A model generated the notes under the pieces. It saw nothing but the letters and a program-made list of their open reading frames with translations. It made no database searches and was not told the DNA's origin. The translations under genes were made by a program, and so were the position numbers. A stretch of 25,777 nucleotides of DNA from a virus: the IMG/VR virus record IMGVR_UViG_3300009184_000185, positions 1 to 25,777 of that record; one strand, 5' to 3'. Below are positions 3,732 to 18,238 of this stretch, piece after piece. How positions within the stretch are numbered: position 1 is the first letter of the stretch; each line of letters opens with the position of its first letter.

Positions 3732-3979
3732 AGCAAGAAATGCAAGCCGCTTTAGATTCAATGGTGGCGGGTCAGTTTGTGAAGGCGGGTGAGATTTTGC
3801 TTGCTGCCCTCGCGCAGCCAGAGCGCAAGCCGCTGACGGATGCTGACATTGAGTTAGCCTACCGCGAAATCTGGCGAAACTTATCAGATGGCTTTAGCCA
3901 CACATCGGCAGAGTGGATTGAGGCAGGCATCCGGTACGCTGAAAAAGCGCATGGGATTGGAGATAAACATGAGCGATAA
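3719..3979 (+). CDS. small helical early protein, unknown function
   Basis: The product has 86 residues and looks largely helical: an N-terminal helix (LKQEMQAALDSMVAG), a middle helix rich in Ala/Leu, and a C-terminal segment ending in GIRYAEKAHGIG. The in-frame GTG at 3662 would add 19 residues. The ATG at 3719 is preferred because a GGGGGA ribosome site lies 5-6 bases upstream and the overlap with the previous gene is then short. I do not recognise the family. Confidence 0.6.
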   Translation: MGVLKQEMQAALDSMVAGQFVKAGEILLAALAQPERKPLTDADIELAYREIWRNLSDGFSHTSAEWIEAGIRYAEKAHGIGDKHER

Positions 3980-4130
3980 ATACCACCGCACAATGCAGTC
4001 GGCCTTTGGCCCTTACACCAGCCATCACATTGACGAAGACCCAGATCCCGCTGAAGTGTGGACGTTTTGGCTGGCCGTAGGGGTTACGGTCTTGCTGGCT
4101 GTTCTGATTGTGTGGCTGATGGTATGCTGA
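3969..4130 (+). CDS. small single-pass membrane protein
   Basis: The 53-residue product has a hydrophilic N-terminus with His and Asp (HHIDEDPDPAE), then one transmembrane helix from about residue 31 to the end (VWTFWLAVGVTVLLAVLIVW). There is no signal peptidase site, so it is probably an inner-membrane protein with the N-terminus outside the lipid. The ATG at 3969 has GGAG six bases upstream and overlaps the previous gene by 11 bases. Its place among replication genes rather than in the lysis cassette argues against a holin. A host-membrane takeover or superinfection role is possible but not shown. Confidence 0.6.
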   Translation: MSDKYHRTMQSAFGPYTSHHIDEDPDPAEVWTFWLAVGVTVLLAVLIVWLMVC

Positions 4131-4315
4131 TCTTCCGGCGCTGTATGTTAGTGGCGATGCTCACCGAAGACGCGCCGCCAGAGAAGGCCGAAGCTATCGT
4201 GCTGGGGGCATTGGCCTCAGTTGGCTACACCATCCCCACGCCCCTTCCTATGCCCATTCTTCAAGACGTTGTGGCCTTGACCCTGTACATCCGCAATTAT
4301 GCAAAACCACTTTGA
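4124..4315 (+). CDS. small hypothetical early protein
   Basis: The product has 63 residues. After a short N-terminus (MLIFRRCMLVAM) it has an acidic turn (TEDAPPEKAE), a helix (AIVLGALASVG), a proline-rich linker (PTPLPMPI) and a final helix. An internal ATG at 4145 is an alternative start. The chosen ATG at 4124 overlaps the stop of the membrane-protein gene. No family is recognised, and no strong ribosome site is seen. Confidence 0.5.
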   Translation: MLIFRRCMLVAMLTEDAPPEKAEAIVLGALASVGYTIPTPLPMPILQDVVALTLYIRNYAKPL

Positions 4316-4451
4316 AGATTGGCAGCGCGAAACGCTGGTGCAGTTTGCGAACGAAGCAAACGAAAAGATCAAGCAGCAGCAAGCCGAGATTGACGCGCTG
4401 CGCTCAGACTTGAAGATGTTGCTAAAGGTGTGGCGTGATCAAATGTCCTGA
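4299..4451 (+). CDS. 50-residue coiled-coil protein
   Basis: A short open frame that starts with ATG inside the end of the previous gene (17-base overlap) and stops with TGA at 4449-4451. The translation begins MQNHFEDWQRETL and continues as one long polar helix (EANEKIKQQQAEIDALRSDL) with heptad-like spacing of hydrophobics, then ends in KVWRDQMS. It could form a dimeric coiled coil. The frame is continuous and packed between genes with matching overlaps, which supports it as real, although it lacks a strong ribosome site. Function unknown. Confidence 0.55.
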   Translation: MQNHFEDWQRETLVQFANEANEKIKQQQAEIDALRSDLKMLLKVWRDQMS

Positions 4452-4614
4452 GTGCGGCAGACACGCCAAGGTCAAGGAGTCTCGCCCGCGCCCGTGGGGG
4501 CGTTATCGGCGGTTCGAGTGCCAGTCAGGACATCGATGGAGCGTTCAGGAACGCAGTACAGATACGCTCCCCGCTCCTGACAATGCCACAGATTGTCCTC
4601 CTCTGGAGGACTAG
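4435..4614 (+). CDS. NrdR-like zinc-ribbon protein
   Basis: The 59-residue product begins at GTG 4435, with AAAGG six bases upstream, and overlaps the previous gene by 17 bases. Cys4, Cys7, Cys29 and His33 form a CxxC...CxxxH ribbon. The region around SRPRPWGRYRRFEC resembles the N-terminal zinc ribbon of the NrdR repressor (CP.C...V..SR....RRRREC.....F). The ATP-cone that follows in NrdR is absent, replaced by a short acidic/proline tail. It may be a small phage DNA-binding regulator (compare Ogr/Delta-type zinc activators). Function is inferred only. It is the last gene of the + strand operon. Confidence 0.65.
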   Translation: MIKCPECGRHAKVKESRPRPWGRYRRFECQSGHRWSVQERSTDTLPAPDNATDCPPLED

Positions 4615-4647
4615 CGCAGCCTGCCAGCAGGAGCAGGATGAGCCACC

Positions 4648-4812
4648 TCACTTGTTCTTTTTAGGCGGCGCAGCAGTCTTGGCGCTGGCTTTGAACGCCG
4701 CAGCCGTAGGCGCGCCAGGTGAGCCTACCTTGCGCATACGTTCGCCGCTGCCGTTGGCAATGCGTTCTTGTTTAGCATGAATGTTGGCATACAAGCCGGG
4801 TTTTGTTTTCAT
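4648..4812 (-). CDS. 54-residue basic protein at the end of the late operon
   Basis: Reads MKTKPGLYANIHAKQERI..., then GSGERMRKVGSPGAPT, and ends in a lysine/alanine-rich tail (AKTAAPPKKNK). Proteins with the KPGLYANIHAKxxRI...GSGExMRxxGxxGAPT pattern are small conserved phage proteins of unknown function. It starts inside the stop codon of the neighbouring 81-residue gene (TAATG). It is strongly basic and could bind DNA or be a minor virion component, but nothing here proves this. It is the last gene of the - strand late operon and converges on the early operon. Confidence 0.65.
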   Translation of the reverse strand: MKTKPGLYANIHAKQERIANGSGERMRKVGSPGAPTAAAFKASAKTAAPPKKNK

Positions 4813-5057
4813 TAGCACTTCCACCTTTTAAGTGATGCTTTAGCCCGTTCCGCTGGGCCTTTAGCGTGTTCAACAACACCTTCCATTCGGGCGCAAAACG
4901 AGTCCTTCCGCGCTCCACCTTGCGGCTGCGGCGCCTTAAGGTGGGAGCCTGTTGCGTTGTTGTATTTCTCGCGGCCCTTGGCAGTCAGGCCAGCGCCTCG
5001 AGACGCAGGCAACTTTTCGCCTCTGCTTACTGACAATGATGGGGGTTTTTTGCTCAT
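4812..5057 (-). CDS. small basic protein, DUF6321-like
   Basis: The product has 81 residues and is basic. Conserved patches are GAGLTAKGREKYN, GSHLKAPQPQGG, RKDSFCARMEGV and the ending GPAERAKASLKRWKC. These match a small phage family that I recall as DUF6321, whose function is unknown. The ATG at 5057 sits three bases beyond the endolysin stop and is preferred over a GTG at 5075 that would overlap the endolysin. An AGGTAGG ribosome-like site precedes it. The paired Cys residues might bind metal. Confidence 0.65.
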   Translation of the reverse strand: MSKKPPSLSVSRGEKLPASRGAGLTAKGREKYNNATGSHLKAPQPQGGARKDSFCARMEGVVEHAKGPAERAKASLKRWKC

Positions 5058-5059
5058 TA

Positions 5060-5578
5060 TTAACCTACCTTGCACATATCTGTGGCTGTTTGTTGAACCT
5101 CACGCACCCGACGCTCCCAGCCCTTGCCGAAAGTGGGCCAGGTTGCAAGCCGCTGAAGAAACGCAAGCCGGTTGGCGCTGTACTTGTCGATCAGCATCTG
5201 GGGGTTAGTCAGCAGTACCTGTTTCATCGTCTGCTCACCGATTGCGCCATCGGCAACAGCGCCAACCGTCGTTTGCAGCCACTTGGCTGCGCGGCTAACG
5301 CCTGAGTTGACGGCAGCATCAAACACGCAGTAGTCCACGCCAGACGGCAGTTTGTCGCCCTTGACCCTGTCCCAGTACAGTTCTTTGTACAGCGGCGCGA
5401 CCTTGGCTGGCGTGAGCGCCCTCATGTTTTCTTCGCTGACTGCGCGGTCAATCCAATCCTCCCAAACGGCCTGCGTCACGCCGAGGTTGGTAGCGCCGCC
5501 TGGGTCGGACGGGTGATTGACAAAACCCCCTTCGTGCTTGAGCAGCTCGGCCAGGCTTTTGTCAAAGTTCGTATTCAT
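5060..5578 (-). CDS. endolysin, GH108-type N-acetylmuramidase
   Basis: This 172-residue enzyme cleaves the glycan backbone of peptidoglycan to lyse the host. The N-terminal GH108 domain shows the catalytic glutamate in HEGGF (Glu16), then the family loop HPSDPGGATNLGVT at 22-35. The C-terminal half (about 95-170) resembles the PG_binding_3 domain: DAAVNSGVSRAAKWLQ, then GAIGEQTMKQV. There is no signal peptide or SAR anchor, so it should wait in the cytoplasm for a holin. The two preceding genes are holin candidates. It overlaps the small membrane protein gene by 4 bases. Confidence 0.92.
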   Translation of the reverse strand: MNTNFDKSLAELLKHEGGFVNHPSDPGGATNLGVTQAVWEDWIDRAVSEENMRALTPAKVAPLYKELYWDRVKGDKLPSGVDYCVFDAAVNSGVSRAAKWLQTTVGAVADGAIGEQTMKQVLLTNPQMLIDKYSANRLAFLQRLATWPTFGKGWERRVREVQQTATDMCKVG

Positions 5579-5784
5579 TTGTCATCCCGCCCCATTTTGA
5601 TTCCGGCAATCGTGCCAACAAACGCCCCAACAATCATATTAAATGCGGGTTCAACCATTTTAAATATGGCAGCGTTGTCTACTCTTGGATCAAAAAATGC
5701 ATATAAGCAAACCCCTGCGGTAGACATCAGAACTACTGCCAGCGAAACACAGCAGACAATAGTTACCTGATCGCTGACCTTCAT
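5575..5784 (-). CDS. small two-TM membrane protein, possible second holin/antiholin
   Basis: The product has 69 residues with two predicted transmembrane helices. The first is roughly residues 7-29 (VTIVCCVSLAVVLMSTAGVC) and the second roughly 46-63 (NMIVGAFVGTIAGIKMG). A short loop with Asp and Arg lies between them, and the tail is charged (GRDDK). The ATG at 5784 overlaps the stop of the 3TM holin gene (ATGA). Its position directly between the holin and endolysin genes suggests a class II holin or an antiholin modulator. Sequence alone cannot tell which. Confidence 0.7.
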   Translation of the reverse strand: MKVSDQVTIVCCVSLAVVLMSTAGVCLYAFFDPRVDNAAIFKMVEPAFNMIVGAFVGTIAGIKMGRDDK

Positions 5785-6266
5785 TTCCTCAACGCCTCTG
5801 CCTTTTCTTTGGAGCCAATGCTGGAGCCGAACCAAAAATTGAGCATGGTGGCGATCACCGTGCCTAAGATAAATCCTAGAATGGTATCGGCAAACCGGAC
5901 GTTTGTATCTGGAATTACGCTGAACGTGATAAAACCAATGTAGATGGCCGCAGCAATGCTCCAGAACGCAGTCAGGTACATCGTGAACCGCTTGGAGAAA
6001 ACATCTGACTGATTGAACGCGGCAACTTGCATTGCCCTAGCGTCGGCAGTATTGGCGTACTCTGCTTTCAGTTTGTCCAGATCAATCTGCGCCAACTTTA
6101 GCGCGGCCTCGGGATCTCCAGCAATTGCTTTAGCCACCTCATCAACCGTATCTTTTACTCCCAACTTAGAAGCAATAGCCGATACAACCAGACCCCCAGC
6201 GGGGCCAGCAACAGCAGTTGCAAGAGCAGGGGCAATGTTGCCAAGCAGTCGGAGCAGTTCATTCAT
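5781..6266 (-). CDS. holin, GTA_holin_3TM family
   Basis: The product has 161 residues and matches the '3TM holin for gene-transfer release' family (GTA_holin_3TM). A hydrophobic Ala/Gly/Pro-rich N-terminus (ALATAVAGPAGGLVVSAIAS) is followed by an amphipathic helix rich in Asp/Glu (GDPEAALKLAQIDLDKLKAEY). Two further hydrophobic helices follow: YLTAFWSIAAAIYIGFITF and ILGFILGTVIATMLNFWFG. The C-terminus is short and charged. It would form inner-membrane holes that let the endolysin reach the cell wall. The start overlaps the previous stop (ATGA). Confidence 0.85.
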   Translation of the reverse strand: MNELLRLLGNIAPALATAVAGPAGGLVVSAIASKLGVKDTVDEVAKAIAGDPEAALKLAQIDLDKLKAEYANTADARAMQVAAFNQSDVFSKRFTMYLTAFWSIAAAIYIGFITFSVIPDTNVRFADTILGFILGTVIATMLNFWFGSSIGSKEKAEALRK

Positions 6267-6496
6267 TTGTCAACCTTGTTATCAAGCCGATCAAATATTT
6301 TGTTGAGCATCTCTTTGATTTCGTAAATATCCCTGCGATAGTCTTCTTTCATGACATATGACCGAGGCATCTCTTCGCGCAACTTAGACAGATCAACTTT
6401 AAGCTCTTTGACCGCATTCCACAATTCTCTGGCAAACCAGCCCAGCACGGCAGACGCTGCACCGAACGCAAGGTTGATCAGGTTCTGGGAGTCCAT
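6263..6496 (-). CDS. N-terminal TM plus coiled-coil protein in lysis cassette
   Basis: The 77-residue product has one N-terminal hydrophobic helix (NLAFGAASAVLGWF region, residues 6-21). A long charged coiled coil follows (WNAVKELKVDLSKLREE and YRRDIYEIKEMLNKIF). This is the shape of XhlA-type lysis proteins and of inner-membrane spanins. The ATG at 6496 overlaps the upstream stop (TGATG), and a GTG at 6499 is less likely. It lies directly before the holin gene, so a role in lysis is likely. No separate lipoprotein o-spanin is seen. Confidence 0.65.
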   Translation of the reverse strand: MDSQNLINLAFGAASAVLGWFARELWNAVKELKVDLSKLREEMPRSYVMKEDYRRDIYEIKEMLNKIFDRLDNKVDK

Positions 6497-6894
6497 CACG
6501 CAGACACCTTTGCGGCTGCAACAAACAGCGCGTCAACGTCGGTGGCGGTGAGGTTCAGCATCGTCGCCAACGCATTAAGGGTTGGCGAAGTTCTCTCCCA
6601 ATCCGCTGCATTTTCCCAAGCCAGCCGCTGGACGTTGTTTTGATCCAGCGTGGCAATATAGGTGCGAACCGTATCCAGATACCCGCCAGCCGCAAGTACA
6701 GCCAACGCTTGGAAGCGCGTCACCGTGCTGGGGACAGGTGGCGGTGGTGGCACATAAGGCTCAGGCGTATTGCCTTCTGCAAGCCATTCAAGGTATTGCT
6801 GGTAGTCGGTGTTGGCGGGTTCTGGTGGAATGTAAGTTTTAGAGTCAGCACTATTAACTCGCACAATCATTATGGAATCAGTTAATTTGTACAT
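6496..6894 (-). CDS. tail-fibre assembly/chaperone-like protein
   Basis: The product has 132 residues from ATG 6894, one base after the tail-fibre stop. The N-terminal part (MYKLTDSIMIVRV, then IPPEPANTDYQQYLEWLAEG) is the usual opening of small proteins encoded after phage tail fibres. A proline hinge (PYVPPPPPVPS) follows. The C-terminal domain is helical (VTRFQALAVLAAGGYLDTV... ending ATDVDALFVAAAKV), typical of tail-fibre assembly chaperones. It probably helps the adjacent fibre fold or trimerise. The longer upstream start would overlap the fibre gene and is not needed. Confidence 0.7.
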   Translation of the reverse strand: MYKLTDSIMIVRVNSADSKTYIPPEPANTDYQQYLEWLAEGNTPEPYVPPPPPVPSTVTRFQALAVLAAGGYLDTVRTYIATLDQNNVQRLAWENAADWERTSPTLNALATMLNLTATDVDALFVAAAKVSA

Positions 6895-6895
6895 T

Positions 6896-8089
6896 TTACA
6901 ACTCCGCGTTTGCAAATAGAGTAGCGCTTTGTATGTAATGTCGTGCGGGTGGGGTAGTTACTCCACTAGCACCAGACGCTAAATTTGTTGTATATCCAAA
7001 TACTGCCGGAAAGAATGAAATTGTAGTAGTTGCTGGCGAAGCGGTTCCACCAGAAGACGTTATAGATGGCGTAGTCCTCATTGGTACACCATAAGGAACG
7101 CTCCAAAATACACTATCATTTTGAACCATATATGCTGCATATCTCACATCTGCTTGCGTCCAATAATAACGAGCGCACAAAGAGTATTCCAGTCCAATCG
7201 GACGTTGCTCAAATGGCGTGGCGACGCTGCCAAATTCCAGTTGACAATTTCCAATGTTCCACGTTCCAGATATTTGAGCGGCAACGCTCAATTCAATTTC
7301 AATGCCTGTCGTTGCTGCGGCTGGAATTGTAATATTGGTGTTGTAGCGAGTTAGCGTTGAAGTGACGGTAAATGTGCCCGTAGAAATCAACGTGCGCGTT
7401 GGGCTTGCAAGCGTGCCAAATGTATTTGCGGTGTTGGCATACCATGCCGTCCATGTAACGGTAGTCAGCAGGCTGTTAGACAGGTCTACCGACAGCGTGG
7501 CGGTGTTGCCCGCAAGGTCTTGGCAGTTGAGGTTCTCAATGCGCTGTGCAAAGCCAATCTTGGTAACCGATGCAGCGCCTGTGAAACGATACAGATAGGC
7601 GTTGGGTGCTGTGCCTGCCACGCGCTGTCCGGTGACGTTTGCGCCCGTGCAATAGGCGTAAAAACGGTCTACCGTGTAGGCTAGTGCTGCGGCTGCGGTG
7701 ATGGTCTGTGATGCGCCAGAGTTGCGCTGGTCATTGTAGAAATTACCGTTAATGACACGATTGCGGAGACCGGCAAGCGCACTCCCATTCAGCGAGGCCA
7801 TCTGCACGTTGCCGCTAAAGGTGCCGGTGGTTCCGCTAATCGCCCCCATCGGGCTGCCATAAGCCAACGCATCGCCTGCCACGGTCGGTGCGCCCAAACC
7901 CGTGAGCTTGAAGCTGCCCATCGGAATGTTGGCAGTAGGCGTTGTCTGGCCATCTTTGGCCAAGCTCTGCGTCAGCGCCGTGGCAATATCAGACAGCGTG
8001 TTATTGGCCCAAGTGCTGCTGATGGTCGTGCCTGTGACGACCGGATTGCCTGCTGGCAGCGTGTATGTTCCTGATCCGTTGCGACTCAT
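6896..8089 (-). CDS. tail fibre (receptor-binding) protein
   Basis: The 397-residue product opens with the common phage tail-fibre pattern NGSGTYTLPAGNPVVTGT...STWANNTLSDIATALTQSL, followed by IPMGSFKLTGLGAP. The middle begins LRNRVINGNF, which typically opens a jelly-roll carbohydrate-binding module in freshwater and marine phage fibres. That module includes the end motif NCQLEFGSVATPFEQRPIGLE. The last hundred residues are Ser/Thr/Gly-rich beta structure. It should sit on the virion tail and recognise a surface glycan. A GAGGA ribosome site precedes the ATG, and the gene is followed by its chaperone-like partner. Confidence 0.82.
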   Translation of the reverse strand: MSRNGSGTYTLPAGNPVVTGTTISSTWANNTLSDIATALTQSLAKDGQTTPTANIPMGSFKLTGLGAPTVAGDALAYGSPMGAISGTTGTFSGNVQMASLNGSALAGLRNRVINGNFYNDQRNSGASQTITAAAALAYTVDRFYAYCTGANVTGQRVAGTAPNAYLYRFTGAASVTKIGFAQRIENLNCQDLAGNTATLSVDLSNSLLTTVTWTAWYANTANTFGTLASPTRTLISTGTFTVTSTLTRYNTNITIPAAATTGIEIELSVAAQISGTWNIGNCQLEFGSVATPFEQRPIGLEYSLCARYYWTQADVRYAAYMVQNDSVFWSVPYGVPMRTTPSITSSGGTASPATTTISFFPAVFGYTTNLASGASGVTTPPARHYIQSATLFANAEL

Positions 8090-8096
8090 GTAATCC

Positions 8097-8459
8097 TCAC
8101 TTTAGCGTCAGTTTGTACAGCGTGGCCAAATACAGCCCAACGATCTCGTCAATAATATTGTTTAGCGGCGAGTCATCTGCGGGCACAAAGTCTCGCGTCT
8201 CCTCGATGGCATCCATGTGCAGCCTCAACACATCAACAATATCGCCTTTGGGGTTGTTCAAGTTTGGCAAGCTGCCAATGCGCTGTTTGTTGCGACCCAT
8301 CCATGCCTCAGAAAACTTATCGGCCAGATCAACAATTGAGTCGTAAAACTTACCCAGAGCTTTATGCTGGGCAAAACTGGTCGTGTTAAGGTGAGCAATG
8401 TGCGCTGCGTCTCGGCTGAGAAATAGCAGGGCCAGGAATTGTTGGGCGTCGGATTTCAT
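8097..8459 (-). CDS. DUF5856-like (ferritin/Dps-like helical) protein
   Basis: The 120-residue all-helical protein matches a phage family I recall as DUF5856, which resembles Dps/ferritin four-helix bundles. Recognisable segments are LSRDAAHIAHLNTTSFAQHKALGKFYDSIVDLADKF and the later VDVLRLHMDAIEETRDF. The His residues and the Glu/Asp positions (HIAHL, HKAL, DLADKF) could bind metal, although the canonical ferroxidase set is not obvious. It lies between the ejection-protein genes and the tail fibre, so it may be a virion component. It overlaps the previous gene by 4 bases. Function unknown. Confidence 0.65.
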   Translation of the reverse strand: MKSDAQQFLALLFLSRDAAHIAHLNTTSFAQHKALGKFYDSIVDLADKFSEAWMGRNKQRIGSLPNLNNPKGDIVDVLRLHMDAIEETRDFVPADDSPLNNIIDEIVGLYLATLYKLTLK

Positions 8460-10120
8460 TGCTGCTCCATATCAGTAAGGGACAAAGGAGCGCCTCTGTA
8501 GGTGCCCTGCTTAAGCATTTGGATCAATCGTGGGTCTACCCTTTGATTGACAAGGCGAGCGCCCTGACCGGCCTTGTACATGGCTTCGCCGACAAGCCTG
8601 GGAGATGATACAAGCCCCATGCCAACGGCGGCAGGGATATTGCCCAATGCGCCAATGCCAATGGCGCTTGCAGGATTGACCGCCCGTTGTATGCCTCGCG
8701 GCATGTAGTCATTGAGTGCTTGGCCTGCCAACGCTGGCATGAACTCATTGCCGCCTGCTTGCTCAAGTTGCTGTGCAAGCTGGTCGCGATAGCCGTAGTT
8801 TGTGTTTACATTGTTGCGCATCAAAGATTGCAACTTGCGCATGGCCGTATCAGCAGAAGCCTTTTGACCCAACGACAAAGAACGCTCAATCTCTTTCATA
8901 GTGTCAGATGCAGAGTGATAGTCTTTCATCACTTTGGCATAAGTTGGAGCTTGTGCGGTAATCTCGTTTTTAATTGAGTTGTACACATTTCCCGCAGCGG
9001 TGCGAGCCGTTTTCTGTTCAAACGGAATGCTTTCCAGCAAGCCGCCAACGCGCTGTTTTAACGCATCCAAACCTTCGGGGGTGTGATATTCAACAGGATC
9101 AAGATTTTTCAACTCATCAATAGAATCTTTGATTTTGCTCAAAGCAGTAACAGCTTCTTGATTTTTGACAAAACCCTTAAATTTTGTCATGTCAAAAGCA
9201 TCATTTACAGCTTTGTCAATGTTTCCAAAGTCAAGAATTGATTTGTCGTTTCTAATGTCAACCATGCCCGAGCGATAAGCATTTTGCTTTTGAGCGTTCA
9301 TTGCGCTCAAGTTGGCACGAGCTGCATCAAGCACGTTGTTCATGCCTTGACCTTCGCGCATGGCTTCAACAAATGACGTGGCTTTTGTGCCGCCTTGTTT
9401 GCCTGCTTGGTAGGCTTGCTTCAAAGCCTCCTCGCCAACGCCTGTAGTGCCCCCCAGCATCTTTGTGATGGCAGAGCCTGCCTTTCCAACAACAGGCAAT
9501 GCAGCACCAATGGCGGCGCCAGAGCCAACGTCCTCGGGATTAACCAAGGCCGCGCTTGCGCCGCCTGAGACAGCCCCGCCAACTGCGCGAGTGCCAATGT
9601 TTGGGCCAGTCATGCCGCCTGAACGCAGAGCCTGAATCAAGCCTGGCACGCGAGAGGCCACAGTCGGAGCTGCGGACAAGCCTTTGGCAAGCACGCCGCC
9701 TGCGCCTGCTGTACCGGCCATCTCACCGCCAAACTTGCCAATGCCGTACATCGTGGATTCGGGGTCAACGCCCATCTCTTGCAAGCCACCTGTCATGCCT
9801 GCGCGACGGTCTTGCCCTGCAATGTCGTAACCACCAATGTTGATTGGCTGGCCCTTGTTCATCGCCCGAGCTGCTATATCAATCGGTGCCAACAGCGTGG
9901 CCCCAACTGAGCCAGCGCCGCGCACGGCACCGCCAATCAAATTGCCAATGTCTTGACCGAATGTTGTGGATTGCTCAGAGGCAGGAATTGGGGCGGCAGG
10001 TGCTTGTTGCTTGCCAAACGTCTGCGCTGCAAATGCCTCAATGTCGGCAGGCTTTGCATTGTCTGGGCCTTCAAAAACATGGATGGCACCGTCTGGGCCT
10101 TGGACTCGGTAGCGTGCCAT
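8456..10120 (-). CDS. large internal virion (ejection) protein
   Basis: The product has 554 residues. A small N-terminal domain (ARYRVQGPDGAIHVFEGPDNAKPADIEAFA) looks like a compact beta-alpha fold often seen at the start of phage DNA-transfer proteins. It is followed by long Gly/Ala-rich, weakly hydrophobic stretches (GGAVRGAGSVGATLLAPID, PTVASRVPG, GGAVSGGASAALV). A mostly helical charged region and another Gly-rich tail come next. This composition and position, third in a run of such genes between the nozzle and the fibre, fit P22 gp16/gp20-like ejection proteins that enter the host with the DNA. Start ATG 10120 overlaps the previous stop. Confidence 0.65.
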   Translation of the reverse strand: MARYRVQGPDGAIHVFEGPDNAKPADIEAFAAQTFGKQQAPAAPIPASEQSTTFGQDIGNLIGGAVRGAGSVGATLLAPIDIAARAMNKGQPINIGGYDIAGQDRRAGMTGGLQEMGVDPESTMYGIGKFGGEMAGTAGAGGVLAKGLSAAPTVASRVPGLIQALRSGGMTGPNIGTRAVGGAVSGGASAALVNPEDVGSGAAIGAALPVVGKAGSAITKMLGGTTGVGEEALKQAYQAGKQGGTKATSFVEAMREGQGMNNVLDAARANLSAMNAQKQNAYRSGMVDIRNDKSILDFGNIDKAVNDAFDMTKFKGFVKNQEAVTALSKIKDSIDELKNLDPVEYHTPEGLDALKQRVGGLLESIPFEQKTARTAAGNVYNSIKNEITAQAPTYAKVMKDYHSASDTMKEIERSLSLGQKASADTAMRKLQSLMRNNVNTNYGYRDQLAQQLEQAGGNEFMPALAGQALNDYMPRGIQRAVNPASAIGIGALGNIPAAVGMGLVSSPRLVGEAMYKAGQGARLVNQRVDPRLIQMLKQGTYRGAPLSLTDMEQQ

Positions 10121-11369: not shown

Positions 11370-12260
11370 TTAGAACTTAAACACATTGCCAAAGCCACCG
11401 GCTCGACCAGATGCGCCAATTGCAGCACCCCCCAAATTCATCAAGCCACCCATAAAACCACCTGATGCCGCTTGTTTTGCGTTGTAGTTGTCCAACGCCG
11501 ACTGATACTGCTGCTGACCAGCCTGCGAGTAGTTTGCACCCCCAGGCGCTGGGCCAAACTGCGGCGTGGTGACTTGTGAACCACTACGCAGGGCGTTGAG
11601 GTTGTTGATGTCGCGGGTGTTGAAGTAGTTTTGCTCTTGCAGACCTTGTTGACGCCGTGCCATAGCTTGTTGGTACGTTTGGCCTTGCTGCTGCATCCCA
11701 AGGTTGATGCCTTGGAGCGCGGCCTGCTGGTACAGATCGTTCTCGCGCTGATTCTGGTCGCGCAGGGCGTTGTTGTAGGCTTCTGTGCCACGGGCCAGAC
11801 CCTGATTGCTCAGTTGCGTCTCAAGCCCGCTGCGCTGTTGTTGCAGCGTTGGTTGAAGGCGATCCAAGATGGCTTGCGTGGCCGTGTTCGTGGCCATGTT
11901 GGGATCGTAGGCGCTGCCCATTGCAGACAGGTTTTCGTCGCCAAAACCACGCGCTTGTTGAGCTGCAACGCGAGCCGTAGCCTGATCTTGCAGCTTTGCA
12001 AGATTCATGCTTGTTTCGTTTTGCTGATTCAGCAATGCCTGTTGTTCAGGCGAAAGCGTCAGCGTCTGGCCGTACATTGGCTTGCCCGTGCCAGCAATTG
12101 GTTTGCCGGTTTTAGGGTTGATCTTGCCGCCGTATTCGCCCATCTGACTGTACGTCAGCGACCCGTAGGGCGTGTATTGATTGACACGCTGGGCTGCGGC
12201 AGTCTGTTCTGCCAATGCCGTGTAGTCAGGTGCCTTCGGCGCTTTGCTCTTTTTTCCCAT
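11370..12260 (-). CDS. internal virion protein, Gln-rich (MGKKSKAPKAP type)
   Basis: The product has 296 residues. It begins with a basic, proline-rich head (MGKKSKAPKAPDYTALAEQ) and the segment VNQYTPYGSLTYSQ, which is common in podovirus internal or DNA-transfer proteins. It is followed by the TLTLSPEQQALLNQQNE region. The middle is a long Gln/Asn/Ala helix and the end is Gly-rich (GGFMGGLMNLGGAAIGASG), perhaps membrane-active. A GGAGAG ribosome site precedes the ATG and lies within the end of the acetyltransferase gene, which overlaps by 35 bases. It is probably ejected with the genome, by analogy with P22 gp7/gp20. Confidence 0.65.
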   Translation of the reverse strand: MGKKSKAPKAPDYTALAEQTAAAQRVNQYTPYGSLTYSQMGEYGGKINPKTGKPIAGTGKPMYGQTLTLSPEQQALLNQQNETSMNLAKLQDQATARVAAQQARGFGDENLSAMGSAYDPNMATNTATQAILDRLQPTLQQQRSGLETQLSNQGLARGTEAYNNALRDQNQRENDLYQQAALQGINLGMQQQGQTYQQAMARRQQGLQEQNYFNTRDINNLNALRSGSQVTTPQFGPAPGGANYSQAGQQQYQSALDNYNAKQAASGGFMGGLMNLGGAAIGASGRAGGFGNVFKF

Positions 12261-12660
12261 ATTTCTCTCCTAAAAAGCGGCAATCGTCTTTGAACATCAC
12301 ATAGACAATCGCGTCGGCTTCTGGAAAGTAATTTCTCAGGATCGCTTCGCGCTGAAAGCCTAGATGCTCGTTGAGCTTCTGGGCCTTCAAGTTGGTAGAG
12401 TAAACTATACCACTCAGTCTCTTGACGCCCAACTGTTTGAACGGGTAATCAAAAATTGTCCAGTACCATTTCATCGGTACATAGCCATCCACACGGCTGT
12501 GAATCTGGATGTTGGCCTCGTTGTAGTCGTTGTACAGAACGCCCGCGATCAGTTCGCCGTTGCGTTCCCAGCCGATAGTGGCATCGCCAGGCTTGTAGTC
12601 GCACCCAGACTTCTCGGCCACCCACGGGCCAACAATGTCAGGGTCAAGCACAAGACTCAC
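12226..12660 (-). CDS. GNAT-family N-acetyltransferase
   Basis: The product has 144 residues. It has the RimJ/RimL-like GNAT pattern: an early strand with GWERNGELIAGVLY, a central helix (WTIFDYPFKQLGVKRLSGIV), and the typical SNLKAQKLNEHLGFQRE motif with N-x-x-x-x-x-x-x-x-x-GF. A final strand (AIVYVMF) follows. It would transfer an acetyl group from acetyl-CoA to a protein or small-molecule amine; the target is unknown. The classic Q/RxxGxG/A loop is weak, as in other RimJ-type members. It starts with GTG overlapping the upstream stop (GTGA) and overlaps the next gene by 35 bases, so it is locked into the virion operon. Confidence 0.78.
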   Translation of the reverse strand: MSLVLDPDIVGPWVAEKSGCDYKPGDATIGWERNGELIAGVLYNDYNEANIQIHSRVDGYVPMKWYWTIFDYPFKQLGVKRLSGIVYSTNLKAQKLNEHLGFQREAILRNYFPEADAIVYVMFKDDCRFLGEKYGKKEQSAEGT

Positions 12661-14195
12661 AGAATTGCACCCACTTCAAAGACCACATCGGTAGAGACCC
12701 AGCGAATGTCAATGCCATTGGCAGCGCATTGAATTTGAGGTGCCCCGTAATAGCCCACGCCAACGGCCCCCTGCCAAGGCTGTAGCACGTTCAACTCGCC
12801 GCCCCAGACGCCAGTGTCCCATAAGGCCGAATCCCAAGTACCGTAGGCGGTCGGTGAAAAGCTCAACGATGCCGCAGACAGATCAAGGTTGAAGTCCAGA
12901 TTGATCGTGCCCAGTACGGCAGGCGTTCCGTTGGTGCGAAAAATTGGGCGCATCATGGTAAAACGTTTGAGCAGGCCGTTTGAGTTGTAACCAGAAAACG
13001 CTTGCAGCGCCTTGCCGTTGATGTTTGATCCGTTGTCGGTCAGACCTTCATACGCCAACCCAACAAAACCATTGCCGCCAAAGTACGGGTGATCTAAGAA
13101 AAGTTCCCAGCAGTTCGCCTGCCAGCCTGTGAACTGTGACCAGTTTTTTGTGATGGTGTTCATCACATATTGCTGTTGATCTTGCCCCTCAGACACAGGC
13201 ACGTTTAGGTACAACTGGTTCTCGCGGGCGAGATACATCAGTTGCCAACCGTAGTTGTCGCCATAGGTACTAATGGCCGAGCTGACAGCGTACTGAATTT
13301 TCTCGGTCAACGCCACACGGGGATTGACTCGGCTGGACTGCAATGCACCGGCCAAGGGAATCAAACCATCTTGGCTGACGTACAACAAATCGCCCGCCAG
13401 TTTGTATAAACAACGCTCGCCAACGGGGTGTCCAAGCTGCCACACGCCCTTGAGCGCAAACGTGCTTGCGCTGCTAGGGTCTGTGCCCTGATAGATGATG
13501 ATCTCACCCATCGAGGTCACGGCCACATAGTAGTCATCAACGCCATCGCCTGCGTCAAGCGACCATGTGTAATGACACACAATGTAACCGCCCAACTGGG
13601 CTACGGCAGACATATCAATCTTGTTTGCTGCACCGCCAATGCTGTCGGTCGGCAAATACCAAACGACAAGCGTTGAGTCTTGAATGAACCACAAGCGGTT
13701 CTTGAAGGTGATTGGGTTGTTGAGCGTGGTCGTGGTCACGCCCGTGATGGCAGGCGTGGATGCGCCGTCAATGACAGTCCATGTTGCTCCGTTGTACAGA
13801 AGAGGCTTGTCAACCCCATTGGCAACATACATGAAGTTGCCGCCTGCGGTCGTGATGTTGACGTACTGCCAGCGACTGTTAGATTTGCCCGTGACTACCG
13901 CTGCGCCAACCGCTGCGTTGGCGGTTGTATCGTAAAACGCCCCGCCTGCGGCTGCAAACAGCTTGTTTGTCGTTGCGCCTGCGTAAACAAACATACTTTC
14001 AACCTGGCCGCTAATGCCCGTGGCCCACTCTGTATAGCCCTTGCGCAGCGTGACCTCGGTGGTCAGCGGAAACCAGTTCTGCATGATGACCGCATCGGCT
14101 GGCGGCATATCAGCCAGCGAGTCGCGGGCGTTCCAGCCGCCAGTGGGGGCCGTGACCGAGACGGAACGGGATTTGGCGCGAGAGATGAGTGCCAT
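12657..14195 (-). CDS. packaged-DNA stabilisation / tail nozzle protein (P22 gp10-like)
   Basis: The 512-residue protein is beta-rich and looks like a propeller-type tail hub protein. The opening TAPTGGWNARDSLADMPPADAVIMQNWFPLTTEV...RKGY is characteristic of podovirus stabilisation proteins that close the head-tail channel (gp10 in P22). They play the role of tubular protein B in T7. Later strands repeat short blade-like patterns (FVYAGATTNKLFAAAGGAFYDT, YVANGVDKPLLYNG, GDLLYVSQDGLIPLAG). It would sit below the gp4-like adaptor encoded two genes upstream. The start overlaps the stop of the ART gene (TAATG). Confidence 0.8.
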   Translation of the reverse strand: MALISRAKSRSVSVTAPTGGWNARDSLADMPPADAVIMQNWFPLTTEVTLRKGYTEWATGISGQVESMFVYAGATTNKLFAAAGGAFYDTTANAAVGAAVVTGKSNSRWQYVNITTAGGNFMYVANGVDKPLLYNGATWTVIDGASTPAITGVTTTTLNNPITFKNRLWFIQDSTLVVWYLPTDSIGGAANKIDMSAVAQLGGYIVCHYTWSLDAGDGVDDYYVAVTSMGEIIIYQGTDPSSASTFALKGVWQLGHPVGERCLYKLAGDLLYVSQDGLIPLAGALQSSRVNPRVALTEKIQYAVSSAISTYGDNYGWQLMYLARENQLYLNVPVSEGQDQQQYVMNTITKNWSQFTGWQANCWELFLDHPYFGGNGFVGLAYEGLTDNGSNINGKALQAFSGYNSNGLLKRFTMMRPIFRTNGTPAVLGTINLDFNLDLSAASLSFSPTAYGTWDSALWDTGVWGGELNVLQPWQGAVGVGYYGAPQIQCAANGIDIRWVSTDVVFEVGAIL

Positions 14196-15328
14196 TATTT
14201 GGTTCCTAGCGGCTGATTGTTGCGCTCAAGGATGCGAAGTAGGTTTTCATTGCCGGGAAACACGACGTAGTTGCTGGTGCCCGTGCCCGTGCCGCGACTG
14301 CCGCCGTCTAGGTAGCGGATGCCGGGGATGCCCAATTCACGCAAGCGATCAGATGCGGCGGTTGCGTTACCGCCTCGATGCGCCTGATATGCCGCATAAA
14401 TGCCTTTGCCGGTAGGGTCACCGGTTGCAATGTTTGGAAATGATTTTGCGGCTGATTCTCGGATAGCCTCCAAAGCAAGCGCGGTATTTGGGTGCTGCTG
14501 ACTCAGCGGCTTGTCCCAGTCCAGCATCTTGGCTATGGCTTCGTCGGGGAGGTCGACTTTGTAGAGGGAGCCTTCAGGCATGTTGATTTTTGCGTTTTGC
14601 AAAAATTGCAACGCCTCCTGACTGCCTTGGACATCTCCGGGGGTTTTTGCCGCAGCAATCCGCTTTTGCAGTTGAGATAAGAGTTGCCGCTTCGCTTGAT
14701 TGTCAGATTTGCCACCCTTGACCAAATCAAAATACTTTTGAGCAAATGCGGAGGCATAGCCGGTAGTCCCATGATTGGCCGCAGCATCATACAAACTTTG
14801 CTTGTTGCTAGTTGCGTCCCACGTTCCTGTGTTGGGCGTTAATGCATCTTTGTAACTTTGCGCAACCCTTGGGTCTTCAGCTAGATACAACCCATGCCCA
14901 TACGCCTGCGCTCCCTCGCCCGTGCCGATCTTGCTGCTGTCAAAGGCTTCAAACTTGTGCGGTGAGCCGTGAAACACAATCGCTCCAGCCTGCGGGTTCA
15001 TGGTTGCTGGTGCAGCCAAGTTCTCACCCGCTTGCAGCAATCCTTTGGCAATCTGTGCTGCTTTGGCAGAGGCAACAATCGGCGCAACGCCGCCAACAGA
15101 CTCGCCAATCAAGCCGCTTGCGCCTGGGGCTTCAGCCGTCAAGCCATGCTGACGCATCCAATCTGAGCCACCCATTGGCGCATCCCCAACAGGCACGCCC
15201 GCTTTGCGTAGTGCCCAAGCAATCGCATCAACAGGGGCAGAGACGTTAGAGGCTGCCGCATTAGATGCGCCCTGAAAGAATGATTTTGCCTCCCGCAACG
15301 CCTTTGCCAGTTTGAGATTCTCAGCCAT
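14195..15328 (-). CDS. virion-operon protein with ART-PolyVal-like ADP-ribosyltransferase domain
   Basis: The product has 377 residues. The N-terminal ~100 are Ala/Gly-rich and helical, like phage internal virion proteins. From residue 117 the sequence VFHGSPHKFEAFDSSKIGTG, then GEGAQAYGHGLYLAE (137-151), matches the H-Y-E type ADP-ribosyltransferase fold found in polyvalent proteins (ART-PolyVal). His120 and Tyr143 or Tyr148 are the NAD-binding positions. The family ending is near the C-terminus: GIPGIRYLDGGSR, NYVVFPGNENLLRILERN. It would transfer ADP-ribose from NAD to a target. It lies between the head-tail adaptor and the nozzle gene, so it may be packaged and injected, as T4 Alt is. The catalytic Glu cannot be fixed from sequence alone. 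Confidence 0.72.
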   Translation of the reverse strand: MAENLKLAKALREAKSFFQGASNAAASNVSAPVDAIAWALRKAGVPVGDAPMGGSDWMRQHGLTAEAPGASGLIGESVGGVAPIVASAKAAQIAKGLLQAGENLAAPATMNPQAGAIVFHGSPHKFEAFDSSKIGTGEGAQAYGHGLYLAEDPRVAQSYKDALTPNTGTWDATSNKQSLYDAAANHGTTGYASAFAQKYFDLVKGGKSDNQAKRQLLSQLQKRIAAAKTPGDVQGSQEALQFLQNAKINMPEGSLYKVDLPDEAIAKMLDWDKPLSQQHPNTALALEAIRESAAKSFPNIATGDPTGKGIYAAYQAHRGGNATAASDRLRELGIPGIRYLDGGSRGTGTGTSNYVVFPGNENLLRILERNNQPLGTK

Positions 15329-15331
15329 CTC

Positions 15332-16240
15332 TTATCCCTGCCCGTAAATACTGCCATCTGGGATGTTCTCAAACCCGATCAGCACGCTGCTCATCTTCGG
15401 AGCCATGCTCAAGGTCATTGAACCGCCGTCGTTGGCCTTGGCCACGTTGAGCTGCTGGTAGAAGTCGCGGTAGTAGGCCGTGCTGTCGAAGCCCTTGACC
15501 TCAAAGAATCTGAGCTTGAGGCCCAAGACCATCAAGCGGTCAGGGAAGATGCAAGTGTCTGTGTCGGCTGTAAACGATGACTGCGGTGTGGTCGGTTGAT
15601 TGACCCAGCCGTTTGAAACGTACTCATAACCCAGATACTCGTTGGTCGTGATGTTGGGCCAGATTTGGAAGTTGCCGCCAATGAAGCGATACCGCATCCG
15701 TGGGCCGGTGCTGATGTAACTAGACTTAAGAAACTCCCATTGCTGGGCTGTCTCTGGCCCCAACATCTCCCACCGCTTTGACTTGTCGTAGTGCGTGCGG
15801 TCAATCTGCCGGTCAAAATCAGACGGCAGCGGGTAGATGGTCTGGCCAAAGTTAAGCGTGACGCCCGTACCGCTGGCAGATGCTGCCTGAGTCAGCGTGA
15901 CTTGAGTGCTGCTGTCAACAGACAGGATGTAGGTGTCCTGATTGATGCCCGTGCCAGACAGCATATAGTAGGCCGACAACCCCGTTGTGCTAGGGATGCC
16001 GGTGACTACTGCGCTGTTTTGAGTGACGTTGCCCGTTGTAATCAGATATTGGGTTGTGAACCGATACGCAATGTTCAACGCCTGCCACGGGTACTCTCGC
16101 CGCAACTCATTACCAACCGAGTTGATCAAGTACAGCATCTGCGTTACTTGAGTGTCGGTGTTCCCAACAACTTGCGTCGGGATGGTCAGCCCCATCTCGG
16201 CGCTGGCCTGTTGGATGAGTTGCAAGAGAGTAGATGACAT
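15332..16240 (-). CDS. head-tail adaptor (P22 gp4-like)
   Basis: The product has 302 residues. The opening helix pair (LLQLIQQASAEMGL and TQVTQMLYLINSVGNELRREYPWQAL) and the later YPLPSDFDRQIDRTHYDKSKRW segment are typical of podovirus adaptors. They bind the portal and start the tail (gp4 in P22, tubular protein A in T7). Further typical pieces are MRYRFIGGNFQIWP and DTCIFPDRLMVLGLKLRFFE. Residues about 70-131 (TGNVTQNSAVVTGI...QVTLTQAASASGTGVTL) look like an inserted beta-sandwich. P22 gp4 itself is only 166 residues. The gene ends 3 bases before the ART gene. Confidence 0.8.
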   Translation of the reverse strand: MSSTLLQLIQQASAEMGLTIPTQVVGNTDTQVTQMLYLINSVGNELRREYPWQALNIAYRFTTQYLITTGNVTQNSAVVTGIPSTTGLSAYYMLSGTGINQDTYILSVDSSTQVTLTQAASASGTGVTLNFGQTIYPLPSDFDRQIDRTHYDKSKRWEMLGPETAQQWEFLKSSYISTGPRMRYRFIGGNFQIWPNITTNEYLGYEYVSNGWVNQPTTPQSSFTADTDTCIFPDRLMVLGLKLRFFEVKGFDSTAYYRDFYQQLNVAKANDGGSMTLSMAPKMSSVLIGFENIPDGSIYGQG

Positions 16241-16241
16241 A

Positions 16242-16844
16242 TCAGCTTTCTGTTACGGCCTCATCGGCCATTTTGGGCGGTCTGCCTCGCCTTGGCGCAT
16301 CAACCTTGTTCATCAGTTCCGACATCTGCTGCTTAAGCGCCTCAATCTCGGTGTCGCGCTTGCGCAGCTCGTCGGCCTGGGCATCCACAATGGCCGAATC
16401 TTTAGCGCGGGCCAAATAGTTGCGGGCACGATCGCGGAAGGCATGACTGCCCATGCCAACAATCATGTTGACTTTGGACAGTTGCTCGTCGGATGCGTTG
16501 GCGCATTGCTCAACGGTGTAGAAGTGGTAGTGCTTGAGTTCACGCGCCTGTGCTGCGGTGAGCAGCGGCCAATCGCGCAACAAGGTTCCAGAGATGTCGT
16601 CCTCGCCCATGTCGCGCTTCTCGTTTTGATAGTGCGCCCATTGGGTTGGGTACTGCTTTTTGTGCGTATCGTTGGCAAAAGTGTCAATGATGGTGTATTG
16701 GTTCCCAGGAATCTCAATACGAACAAAGTCGGTCATGTAGTAGATGGGGCGACCTTCTTGCTGCGTTTTGAATTCGTGCAGCATCTCTTTAGAGTAGAAC
16801 CGAACTGCTGGCAGGATTGACCCGCCGAAATCTGAATCAAGCAT
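16242..16844 (-). CDS. conserved phage protein with C-terminal coiled coil
   Basis: The product has 200 residues from ATG 16844, preceded by GAGGAAG. The N-terminus (AVRFYSKEMLHEF, then IYYMTDFVRIEIPGNQYTIID) is beta-like. The middle (KKQYPTQWAHYQNEK) and ARELKHYHFYTVEQCANASDEQL are helical, and a charged coiled coil (KRDTEIEALKQQMSELMNKV) precedes a basic tail PRRGRPPKM. The tail resembles an AT-hook (RGRPP), so DNA contact is possible. It lies just before the adaptor in the tail module, and similar proteins occur in podovirus structural regions. Function is unknown. It overlaps the preceding gene by 8 bases. Confidence 0.65.
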   Translation of the reverse strand: MLDSDFGGSILPAVRFYSKEMLHEFKTQQEGRPIYYMTDFVRIEIPGNQYTIIDTFANDTHKKQYPTQWAHYQNEKRDMGEDDISGTLLRDWPLLTAAQARELKHYHFYTVEQCANASDEQLSKVNMIVGMGSHAFRDRARNYLARAKDSAIVDAQADELRKRDTEIEALKQQMSELMNKVDAPRRGRPPKMADEAVTES

Positions 16845-18186
16845 TTTCTTCCTCAAGTGGTTGAGTTACGAAAAACATCACCGCTGTGTCTTGTGTGTTT
16901 TCCCAACGGACGGTGTAACCGAGGGACAAGAAAAGTTCGCGCCACCAGTTTGTGTCCTGCACCGTAAGGTGCAACGGATGGCCAATCAATGCGCCCATTG
17001 TATCGGTGACGGTTGAAATCTGAAAGAACACTTGCGGCGCTGCGGCCATGATGTTATGGATCACGGTACTGACCTGTTCAGACGGAATGTGTTCCATCAC
17101 ATCGGTGCAAAACCCAAAGTCGGCACGATGCGGGATGGGCTGAGTCAAATCGGCCATGGCAAAGCGCAGTTTGTCGCCCAGTTTGGCCCTAACACGCTCA
17201 TCAAGGCAGTTGTCTGCGAAGTCCAACATCAGCACATGGCAATCATGCGCATCATGTATACGCATTGCACCGCGACCCGTGCCTGCGCCAAAGTCAATGA
17301 CGGTGCTGGATGCGGTGGGCAACGTAGCAAGGCAGAACAGATCGGCCACGCCTTCGCCAGGCGCTGCGTTGCGGTAGGCGTCAATCGACCACATGGCTTT
17401 GTACTTGTCTTGCTCGTCTATTGGCTCGGGCGCAATGGCCGCGGCCTTGCTTGTCCACGGCAGCAAACCGTCGCCTCGAATGGTGATCGTGCAGCCAAGG
17501 TCAATGAGGCTGTCTGAGAGCTGCGGAAACAACTCGGCTTGCTTGGCCATGGCCAAAGTAGTCTGGAACTGCTTGCCAGCGACTGTGGCCACGCAATCAA
17601 CGCGCTGGGGGTCGTTTTGGCTGTAGGCGTGGCAATGGCCGTCGCGGTAGCTTGAATCGTAGCCATACAGGTGCAACGAGCGATAGCCCATTGAATAGGC
17701 CACAACCATACCAGACAGGCCCACAGTCGTGCCACCGCCGATCAGCGTGTGCGCGGGTGAATTGGCGGGCAGGCAGGCGTCAAAGCGTTCCATGTCTTGC
17801 GGGTACTCTTGATGCCACAGCATAGCATCGGGGCAAGCGTCAAACAGGCTCGGGTGGCATTGGCTGGCCAGCAGGTATCGCTTGGCGTAGCCAAGCATAG
17901 ACAGATTGATTTCTCTGGCGTCTACGATGATGCAGTAGTCGGCCTCAATGTCGTGCTGCGCGAGCCACCGCGCTGCGCCATTGAGCGCAAAGATGGTCTG
18001 GCCGTGCTGCTTGCGGGCGCGGATCTCGTCAACCCAATCGGCAACGCTTGGGCCACCGCCGACGATGACGGCAAAGCCGTCGTGAGCATCAGCGGAGAAA
18101 AGCCAGTCATTGGCTCGGTGGCTGTTGAACTTGATCTGTTCAAACAGTATGTCGTCGGATGTGTTGCAGGTGGTTTCGATGTTCAT
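16837..18186 (-). CDS. DUF115 (MptE/MAF-like) - SAM methyltransferase fusion
   Basis: This 449-residue protein has two domains. The first (about 37-250) resembles DUF115/MptE-like and motility-accessory proteins: AVIVGGGPSVADW (39-51), TIFALNG, DYCIIVDAR, GGGTTVGLSGM and LYGYDSSYR. The second (about 262-449) is a class I methyltransferase: VIDFGAGTG (296-304), acidic Asp322 in LMLDFADN, MADLTQP, and FCTDVMEHIP (359-368). Related pairs act in sugar or flagellar glycan modification. Here the target could be a phage virion or host surface glycan, which is inference. The ATG at 18186 is the stop-side partner of a tiny ATG-CCT-ACA-GCA-TGA frame at 18183-18197, and no good ribosome site is seen. 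It is the first gene after the terminator. Confidence 0.75.
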   Translation of the reverse strand: MNIETTCNTSDDILFEQIKFNSHRANDWLFSADAHDGFAVIVGGGPSVADWVDEIRARKQHGQTIFALNGAARWLAQHDIEADYCIIVDAREINLSMLGYAKRYLLASQCHPSLFDACPDAMLWHQEYPQDMERFDACLPANSPAHTLIGGGTTVGLSGMVVAYSMGYRSLHLYGYDSSYRDGHCHAYSQNDPQRVDCVATVAGKQFQTTLAMAKQAELFPQLSDSLIDLGCTITIRGDGLLPWTSKAAAIAPEPIDEQDKYKAMWSIDAYRNAAPGEGVADLFCLATLPTASSTVIDFGAGTGRGAMRIHDAHDCHVLMLDFADNCLDERVRAKLGDKLRFAMADLTQPIPHRADFGFCTDVMEHIPSEQVSTVIHNIMAAAPQVFFQISTVTDTMGALIGHPLHLTVQDTNWWRELFLSLGYTVRWENTQDTAVMFFVTQPLEEENA

Positions 18187-18205
18187 GCTGTAGGCATTTA
18201 GATTG

Positions 18206-18238
18206 AAAAATGCCCCCAAAGCTGTAAGCCTGGGGGCA
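18206..18238 (-). terminator. rho-independent terminator after the head genes
   Basis: Read on the - strand, TGCCCCCA and TGGGGGCA form a perfect 8-bp stem (plus strand 211-218 and 231-238). A second inner stem (GCT/AGC) closes the loop, and a TTTTT tract follows immediately (plus strand 18206-18210). It lies 23 bases beyond the stop of the probable decoration gene. It should end or attenuate transcription of the head module before the methyltransferase fusion. Confidence 0.85.

What the first reader, a model, noticed from the sequence alone, without database searches (positions are those of the whole stretch)
14195..15328. ADP-ribosyltransferase domain inside the virion operon
A 377-residue gene locked by overlap between the head-tail adaptor and nozzle genes carries an ART-PolyVal-like signature (HGSPHKF, GTGEGAQAYGHGLYLAE, GIPGIRYLDGG). 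Its N-terminus is Ala/Gly-rich, like an internal virion protein. This suggests a packaged and injected effector that modifies host proteins at the onset of infection, comparable in idea to T4 Alt but of a different ART subfamily.
Basis: partly seen in the sequence, partly recalled or inferred. Interest (0 to 1): 0.65.

Follow-up and report, generated by a model that had tools for sequence, protein, structure and literature searches.

The report
Swappable enzyme cassette in phage operon
A short-tailed phage carries, in a fixed slot between two tail genes, a gene made of a constant front module and a predicted protein-modifying enzyme; in sister phages the same slot is empty or carries a different enzyme, which suggests an interchangeable warhead loaded into the virus particle, although packaging has not been shown.

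Summary
The gene (minus strand, 377 aa) has an ART-PolyVal-like C-terminal domain: PF18760 E=1.4e-5, matched by 50 of 52 relatives; H120 in strand 1 and Y148 in strand 2; and a predicted ART fold whose best PDB match is a cyanophage A4 pre-ejectosome protein. The flanking genes are a SU10-type adaptor and a P22 gp10/tube-B-like "nozzle".

The gene is not locked in place. Near-isogenic phages (84-92% nt identity) have an exactly empty slot, the same N-terminal module fused to a GNAT, or a second N-terminal module fused to the ART or to another domain. The ~110-aa N-module has no Pfam or PHROG match and no match found in cultured phages. It occurs alone (87-92 aa, purifying selection) or fused to other ART types, GNATs, an LPD23/HExxH peptidase-like domain or unknown domains, mostly beside virion genes.

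Best reading: a polymorphic effector cassette, with a constant virion-loading/ejection module (inferred) and an exchangeable enzymatic warhead (exchange shown). It works like a one-warhead polyvalent or MuF-type effector but lacks a MuF domain and an immunity gene. Packaging, activity and target are inferred. The third catalytic residue is unresolved: Pro where a relative has Asp, with a conserved Glu nearby.

The parts
14195..15328 (-). cargo gene, 377 aa: N-module + ART-PolyVal-like domain
14993..15328 (-). N-module (residues 1-112): predicted all-helical, conserved 'ASNxxASNVSAPVDxxAWxLRKAGVPxxxxPxGGSDWMxxxGLT', then a Gly/Ala hydrophobic stretch; inferred virion-loading/ejection module
   Evidence: alignments A1, A2, A4; occurs alone in L085, L129, L188, L195, L196; no Pfam/PHROG match in this region; purifying selection; helices in the model
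14210..14986 (-). ART-PolyVal-like domain (residues 115-373)
   Evidence: PF18760; AlphaFold core mostly pLDDT >90; Foldseek to BFVD ART-PolyVal proteins E=1e-19 and, for the compact relative L026, to PDB 9k3a_B E=1.1e-4 and weaker ART folds
14969..14971 (-). His120, strand 1; 51/52 relatives
14885..14887 (-). Tyr148, strand 2; 52/52 relatives
14246..14272 (-). strand-5 region NYVVFPGNE (353-361): Pro358 follows VVF where phiGT1 has Asp; Asn353 invariant, Glu361 51/52; third catalytic position unresolved
15332..16240 (-). left border of slot: SU10-type adaptor (tube A) gene
   Evidence: PF24175 E=9.5e-8; empty-slot junction
12657..14195 (-). right border of slot: nozzle / tube-B / P22 gp10-like gene; its ATG overlaps the cargo stop by 1 base
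   Evidence: phrog_5107 E=4.8e-131; phiGT1 gp15 homolog

Best explanation
The gene is an exchangeable effector cassette in the late (virion) operon of a P22/SU10-like podovirus. SHOWN by comparison: a ~110-aa N-terminal module and a C-terminal enzymatic domain are separate, recombining units; the cassette sits in a fixed slot between adaptor and nozzle genes; the slot can be empty, hold the N-module alone, or hold the module fused to any of several enzymatic domains; the C-terminal domain here is an ART-PolyVal-like domain with a predicted ADP-ribosyltransferase fold and conserved His and Tyr. INFERRED: the N-module loads the protein into the particle during head/tail assembly (with or near the ejection proteins); the protein leaves with the DNA at infection; the ART domain uses host NAD+ to ADP-ribosylate a host macromolecule early, to disarm defence or redirect host functions; and host counter-adaptation selects for swapping the warhead while the loading module stays constant.
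For: ART. Slot: adaptor stop abuts nozzle ATG in L133, L135, L136, L156, L159, and blastn of the window against L133/L136 (84-92% identical flanks) breaks at those two codons; no copy of the gene was found elsewhere in those records. Swaps: L034/L035 N-module 95% identical, then GNAT (PF13508 E=1.5e-4; phrog_10691 E=1.7e-26) and the same end 'PLGTK'; L042 and L137 carry a second N-module with ART or another domain; L120 N-module + LPD23 (PF18838 E=2.7e-22) + HExxH motif; L174 N-module + GNAT (PF00583 E=1e-7). The same unknown domain is joined to N-module type 1 in L102 and type 2 in L218 (50% identity over 340 aa). N and ART parts differ in synonymous distance between the same pairs (L006/L012: pS 0.13 vs 0.00; L022/L180: 0.29 vs 0.58), and stand-alone N-modules show dN/dS mostly 0.1-0.35. 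Virion setting: N-module genes in other phages lie beside terminase, portal, scaffold/capsid, ejection or lysis genes. Packaging by analogy: the best PDB match of the ART model is 9k3a_B, cyanophage A4 pre-ejectosome, identified as the 1717-aa A-4L ORF27, whose sequence has an ART-like signature (YHGT, GSGTYF) near residue 1425; phage polyvalent proteins cluster with virion genes and about 44% of phage ARTs lie in packaging-type contexts (PMC5512222, PMC9503650).
Against: No virion proteomics could be read for this protein or a close relative. In phiGT1 the ART homolog occupies a different slot with an unrelated N-terminus, so the loading role of the N-module is not supported by that phage. 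The published strand-5 Asp is absent at the aligned position. PF18760 scores below its curated cut-off for this protein. Foldseek E-values to classical ARTs are weak (0.02-0.1), and which part of 9k3a_B aligned is not reported.
Confidence: 0.66

Rival explanations
1. Late-expressed enzyme that is not packaged: a moron in the structural operon, made at the end of infection, acting in the producing cell (superinfection exclusion or late host manipulation).
For: Accessory and dispensable; no direct packaging evidence; in one related contig the N-module gene lies beside lysis-type genes (L090).
Against: The N-module is conserved, also stands alone under purifying selection, and is found beside portal, scaffold or ejection genes in unrelated phages, which a soluble enzyme would not need; an ART-like signature is present in a solved pre-ejectosome protein.
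Confidence: 0.2
2. Catalytically dead ART fold used as a structural or NAD-binding part of the particle.
For: Strand-5 Asp replaced by Pro358 in 51/52 relatives; PF18760 below cut-off.
Against: His120, Tyr148 and the YGHGLYLAE and SR motifs are nearly invariant; Glu361 (51/52) aligns with one of the two Asp residues of phiGT1 in the BLASTP alignment; the domain is exchanged with other enzymes, not with structural domains.
Confidence: 0.07
3. Ordinary structural tail component at the adaptor-nozzle interface.
For: Position between adaptor and nozzle genes with a 1-base overlap.
Against: Near-identical phages lack it entirely with intact flanking genes; its C-terminal two thirds is replaced by unrelated enzymes.
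Confidence: 0.03
4. Polymorphic toxin with immunity, of the MuF type, serving prophage-host or inter-bacterial conflict.
For: Constant N-terminus and variable toxin-like C-terminus, next to head genes (compare PMC12226406).
Against: No immunity gene in the slot (cargo stop overlaps nozzle ATG); no MuF domain; a scan of about 85,000 bacterial/archaeal genomes gave only one contig, a 6.6-kb MAG fragment, with the N-module, arguing against a prophage life style.
Confidence: 0.04

Closest known systems
ART-PolyVal (PF18760), Tox-ART-HYD2 clade of phage polyvalent proteins (Iyer et al. 2017, PMC5512222)
   Same: His in strand 1, Tyr in strand 2, phage origin, next to virion genes; 50/52 relatives match the profile
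   Different: strand-5 Asp position is Pro; two variable inserts; single-warhead protein of ~370 aa; scores below the curated cut-off
Polyvalent proteins (2-15 domain virion-linked effectors)
   Same: C-terminal domains drawn from the same repertoire (ART, LPD23, peptidase-like, GNAT, LPD37-like)
   Different: usually one effector domain behind a short constant N-module, exchanged at one slot; the N-module has no Pfam or PHROG entry
MuF-family polymorphic toxins (PMC12226406)
   Same: constant N-terminal module + variable enzymatic C-terminus, encoded with head genes
   Different: no MuF domain, no immunity gene, apparently not prophage-borne, slot in the tail part of the operon
Phage T4 Alt (Alt/VIP2 clade)
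   Same: idea of a packaged ART acting at once after injection
   Different: Alt is R-S-E type per PMC5512222; here H-Y type; packaging not shown here
Cyanophage A4 pre-ejectosome protein (PDB 9k3a chain B = A-4L ORF27, 1717 aa)
   Same: best PDB match of the ART-domain model (E=1.1e-4, prob 1.00); has a YHGT...GSGTYF signature near residue 1425
   Different: domain embedded in a giant ejection protein; no detectable sequence homology by HMM
Sulfitobacter phage phiGT1 gp5 (QLB38217.1)
   Same: ART domain 30% identical over 306 aa, in the structural operon of a podovirus with homologous tube-B and GNAT-like genes
   Different: different slot (between portal-side gp4 and the scaffold region), unrelated N-terminus, 'VVFDD' instead of 'VVFPGNE'

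Membership tests
ART-PolyVal (PF18760) | profile score above the curated gathering cut-off (31.2 bits) | tested here: not met
   26.3 bits, E=1.4e-5; 50/52 relatives match at E<=0.01, best 2e-9
ART-PolyVal (PF18760) | His in strand 1 | tested here: met
   H120 in strand 115-122, 51/52
ART-PolyVal (PF18760) | Tyr in strand 2 | tested here: met
   Y148 in strand 147-150, 52/52
ART-PolyVal (PF18760) | Asp in strand 5 | tested here: inconclusive
ADP-ribosyltransferase fold | structural match to known ARTs | tested here: met
   compact relative L026 model (pLDDT 82, pTM 0.77): after 9k3a_B, the next PDB matches are RES, ExoA, cholix and ParT ARTs at E 0.02-0.1; BFVD ART-PolyVal proteins E=1e-19 for the full-length model
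Polyvalent protein | two or more effector domains in one polypeptide | tested here: not met
   window protein has one effector domain plus the N-module; some relatives have more (L025, L028, L041, L050, L069)
Polyvalent protein | encoded among late virion genes | tested here: met
   between adaptor and nozzle genes
MuF polymorphic toxin | N-terminal MuF domain | tested here: not met
   no Pfam hit in residues 1-112
MuF polymorphic toxin | adjacent immunity gene | tested here: not met
   cargo stop overlaps the nozzle start; no other gene in the slot
T4 Alt-like packaged ART | R-S-E active site | tested here: not met
   H-Y motif instead
T4 Alt-like packaged ART | present in virions and injected | not testable with these tools
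   needs virion mass spectrometry

The most novel reading that the evidence does not exclude
Short-tailed phages use a previously unnamed family of ~100-aa virion-loading modules (at least two types) as plug-in adaptors that carry any one of a shared repertoire of early effector domains (several ART types, GNAT, peptidase-like, unknown) into the host, from a fixed cassette slot that can be emptied, capped with the bare module, or re-armed by recombination.
Probability: 0.5. Interest if true: 0.76.

Novelty: new variant of a known kind. Interest (0 to 1): 0.6.

Why it matters
If the N-module is a virion-loading signal, it would be a small, portable tag for putting proteins into podovirus particles and into cells, and its fused domains would form a ready list of unknown early host-takeover or counter-defence enzymes. 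Near-isogenic phages that differ by little more than the warhead are a natural experiment: they make 'what does an injected effector buy the phage?' directly testable.

Tried and rejected
Sequence search of PDB with the protein and with two ART profiles: only chance coiled-coil matches. Full-length model against PDB: ART folds lead but E>0.5, probably because of the insert and N-module; the compact relative gave the clearer answer. The N-module alignment of 18 sequences was too diverse for a collection scan; closer sets worked. tblastn of three N-module variants against 50,697 phage records: no hit even at E=1-10; low-complexity masking may contribute, so absence there is not strong. PADLOC: no hits. 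Adaptor and nozzle against PDB by sequence: none. A 1058-aa A-4L protein was first taken for the 9k3a chain; it is ORF27, 1717 aa. Structural-part and toxin-immunity readings rejected for the reasons listed under rivals. phiGT1 virion MS (PMC10386132 Table S3) could not be opened.

Full report
The window is a 25.8-kb virus record from IMG/VR, a linear fragment. The finding's gene is on the minus strand, 14195-15328, 377 aa. PF18760 (ART-PolyVal) matches residues 117-161 at E=1.4e-5, below the curated score, and a separate PHROG profile matches 248-360. 279 stretches in viral contigs encode relatives. Over 52 diverse members the blocks HGSPHKF, GTGEGAQAYGHGLYLAE, YKVDLPDExIAKMLDWDKPL, GIPGIRYLDGGSR and NYVVFPGNE are nearly invariant and two inserts vary; 50 of the 52 match PF18760 on their own.

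Structure. The full-length model (52-sequence alignment) has pLDDT 81.7, with the ART core mostly above 90 and an all-helical N-terminal region; His120 and Tyr148 lie in the first two strands. Foldseek finds named ART-PolyVal phage proteins at E down to 1e-19. A compact relative (L026, 207 aa; pLDDT 82, pTM 0.77) matches PDB 9k3a_B, a cyanophage A4 pre-ejectosome protein, at E=1.1e-4, prob 1.00, then RES, ExoA, cholix and ParT ART folds at E 0.02-0.1. 9k3a_B is the 1717-aa ORF27 of Anabaena phage A-4L, with a YHGT...GSGTYF signature near residue 1425. So a podovirus ejectosome component in a solved particle very probably carries an ART-like domain; which residues aligned is not reported. The paper of that structure was not held.

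Catalytic residues. The published family uses His (strand 1), Tyr (strand 2) and Asp (strand 5) (PMC5512222). His and Tyr are kept. After strand 5, phiGT1 has VVFDD; this clade has VVFPGNE, with Pro358 in 51/52, Glu361 in 51/52 and Asn353 in 52/52.

The slot. The upstream gene is a SU10-type adaptor (PF24175). The downstream gene is phrog_5107, homologous to the phiGT1 'tubular tail B' gene and to a 'phage stabilization protein'. Comparing loci that hold both genes: in 13 slot configurations (distinct by flanking sequence) the adaptor and nozzle genes abut with nothing between; others hold the N-module alone, the N-module + ART, the N-module + another domain, or other N-termini. In the closest relatives the break points are exact: window versus L133 and L136 aligns at 84-92% nt identity up to the adaptor stop and again from the nozzle ATG. 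Those records have no copy of the gene elsewhere, though they may be fragments. Hence the gene is accessory.

Two-part exchange. L034/L035 (two metagenomes) share the N-module at 95% identity, then carry a GNAT in place of the ART and return to the same 'PLGTK-stop-ATG' junction. L042 and L137 share only the first ~15 residues with the window, then a second N-terminal module; L042 continues into an ART, L137 into a different domain with a weak LPD37 match. Further slot contents: LPD23 (E=2.7e-22) followed by HELQH (L120); a second, unrelated-looking GNAT (L174, PF00583 E=1e-7); other H-type ARTs (L123, L164, L191, weak PF18760 matches); possible R-type ARTs by eye only (L171, L204, L205); an unknown domain shared by L179 and L197 (37% identity over 127 aa). 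L171 and L174 keep the first ART strand 'AIVWHGSP' and L179 keeps the ART tail 'ILERNNQP', as expected of recombination at domain ends. One unknown domain is joined to module type 1 in L102 and type 2 in L218 (50% identity). Between the same pairs of genes the N and ART parts have different synonymous distances.

The N-module. No Pfam or PHROG match; no hit in 50,697 phage records (with a masking caveat); one contig in about 85,000 bacterial/archaeal genomes. Stand-alone copies (87-92 aa) evolve with dN/dS mostly 0.1-0.35, so the module has a function without the enzyme. Outside this phage group it lies beside terminase, portal, scaffold/capsid, ejection and, once, lysis-type genes (gene roles there judged partly from sequence by eye).

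Interpretation. A constant N-terminus with exchangeable enzymatic C-termini in virion operons is the logic of polymorphic toxins and of MuF-linked effectors, and the warheads are those of polyvalent proteins, which are thought to be packaged and injected (PMC5512222, PMC9503650). Here that logic appears with an unnamed short module and one effector per protein. The simplest mechanism: the module is loaded with the ejection apparatus, the protein leaves with the DNA, and the ART modifies a host target early. Exchange and fold are supported by the comparisons above; packaging, ejection, activity and target are inferred. Published virion mass spectrometry of phiGT1 (PMC10386132), whose gp5 is a 30%-identical ART homolog, could test packaging of the family at once; its table could not be read here.

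Noticed in passing
L042:6001-6375; L137:4432-4850; L216:3003-3400; L218:3947-4330: A second N-terminal module (type 2, '[RK]PTPRSG..GMLADALMGARNFADRA') in the same slot or directly after portal genes, joined to ART, an LPD37-like region, or the unknown domain also seen with module type 1.
   Followed up: partly
L102:6276-7325 and L218:4334-5368: An unnamed ~340-aa C-terminal domain ('MPWDLTSR...TTGGQDFARD...GGASNLGIAKRI') shared by two different N-modules; no Pfam or PHROG match for L102; L093 may carry a distant version.
   Followed up: partly
window 12226-12660 (-): GNAT-like gene (phrog_4470) directly after the nozzle gene; the phiGT1 counterpart is annotated head assembly protein with an N-acetyltransferase HHpred match and linked to P22 gp14/T7 IVPA, i.e. 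an acetyltransferase fold that may be structural.
   Followed up: no
window 16837-18219 (-): MptE-like domain fused to a methyltransferase domain (PF01973 + PF13649) encoded between capsid-side and adaptor-side genes; an unusual gene for a virion operon, possibly glycan-related.
   Followed up: no
L136:1928-2392: Extra ORF that looks like an HNH-type (homing) endonuclease by eye, inserted just after the major capsid gene; absent from the window at the same place.
   Followed up: partly
L213:20119-21042 (-), A-4L ORF27 residues 1410-1717: Probable ART-like domain (YHGT, GSGTYF) in a cyanophage ejectosome protein of solved structure (9k3a_B); no ART family in Pfam matched it.
   Followed up: partly
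L117:5944-6405: N-module followed directly by the last ~17 residues of the ART ('NERLLKILERNGQSLP'): a natural in-frame loss of the warhead.
   Followed up: no
L031 and L032 (contig IMGVR_UViG_3300011335_000256): The same ART gene region occurs twice in one 55-kb contig about 34.4 kb apart, suggesting a contig that runs more than once around a circular or redundant genome.
   Followed up: no
L210 (BK063671, vir555), 3600-9524: A 5.9-kb ORF with an ART-PolyVal-like match in a virus recorded from Methanomicrobiales, next to an internal virion protein gene: this ART type may also occur in a methanogen virus.
   Followed up: no
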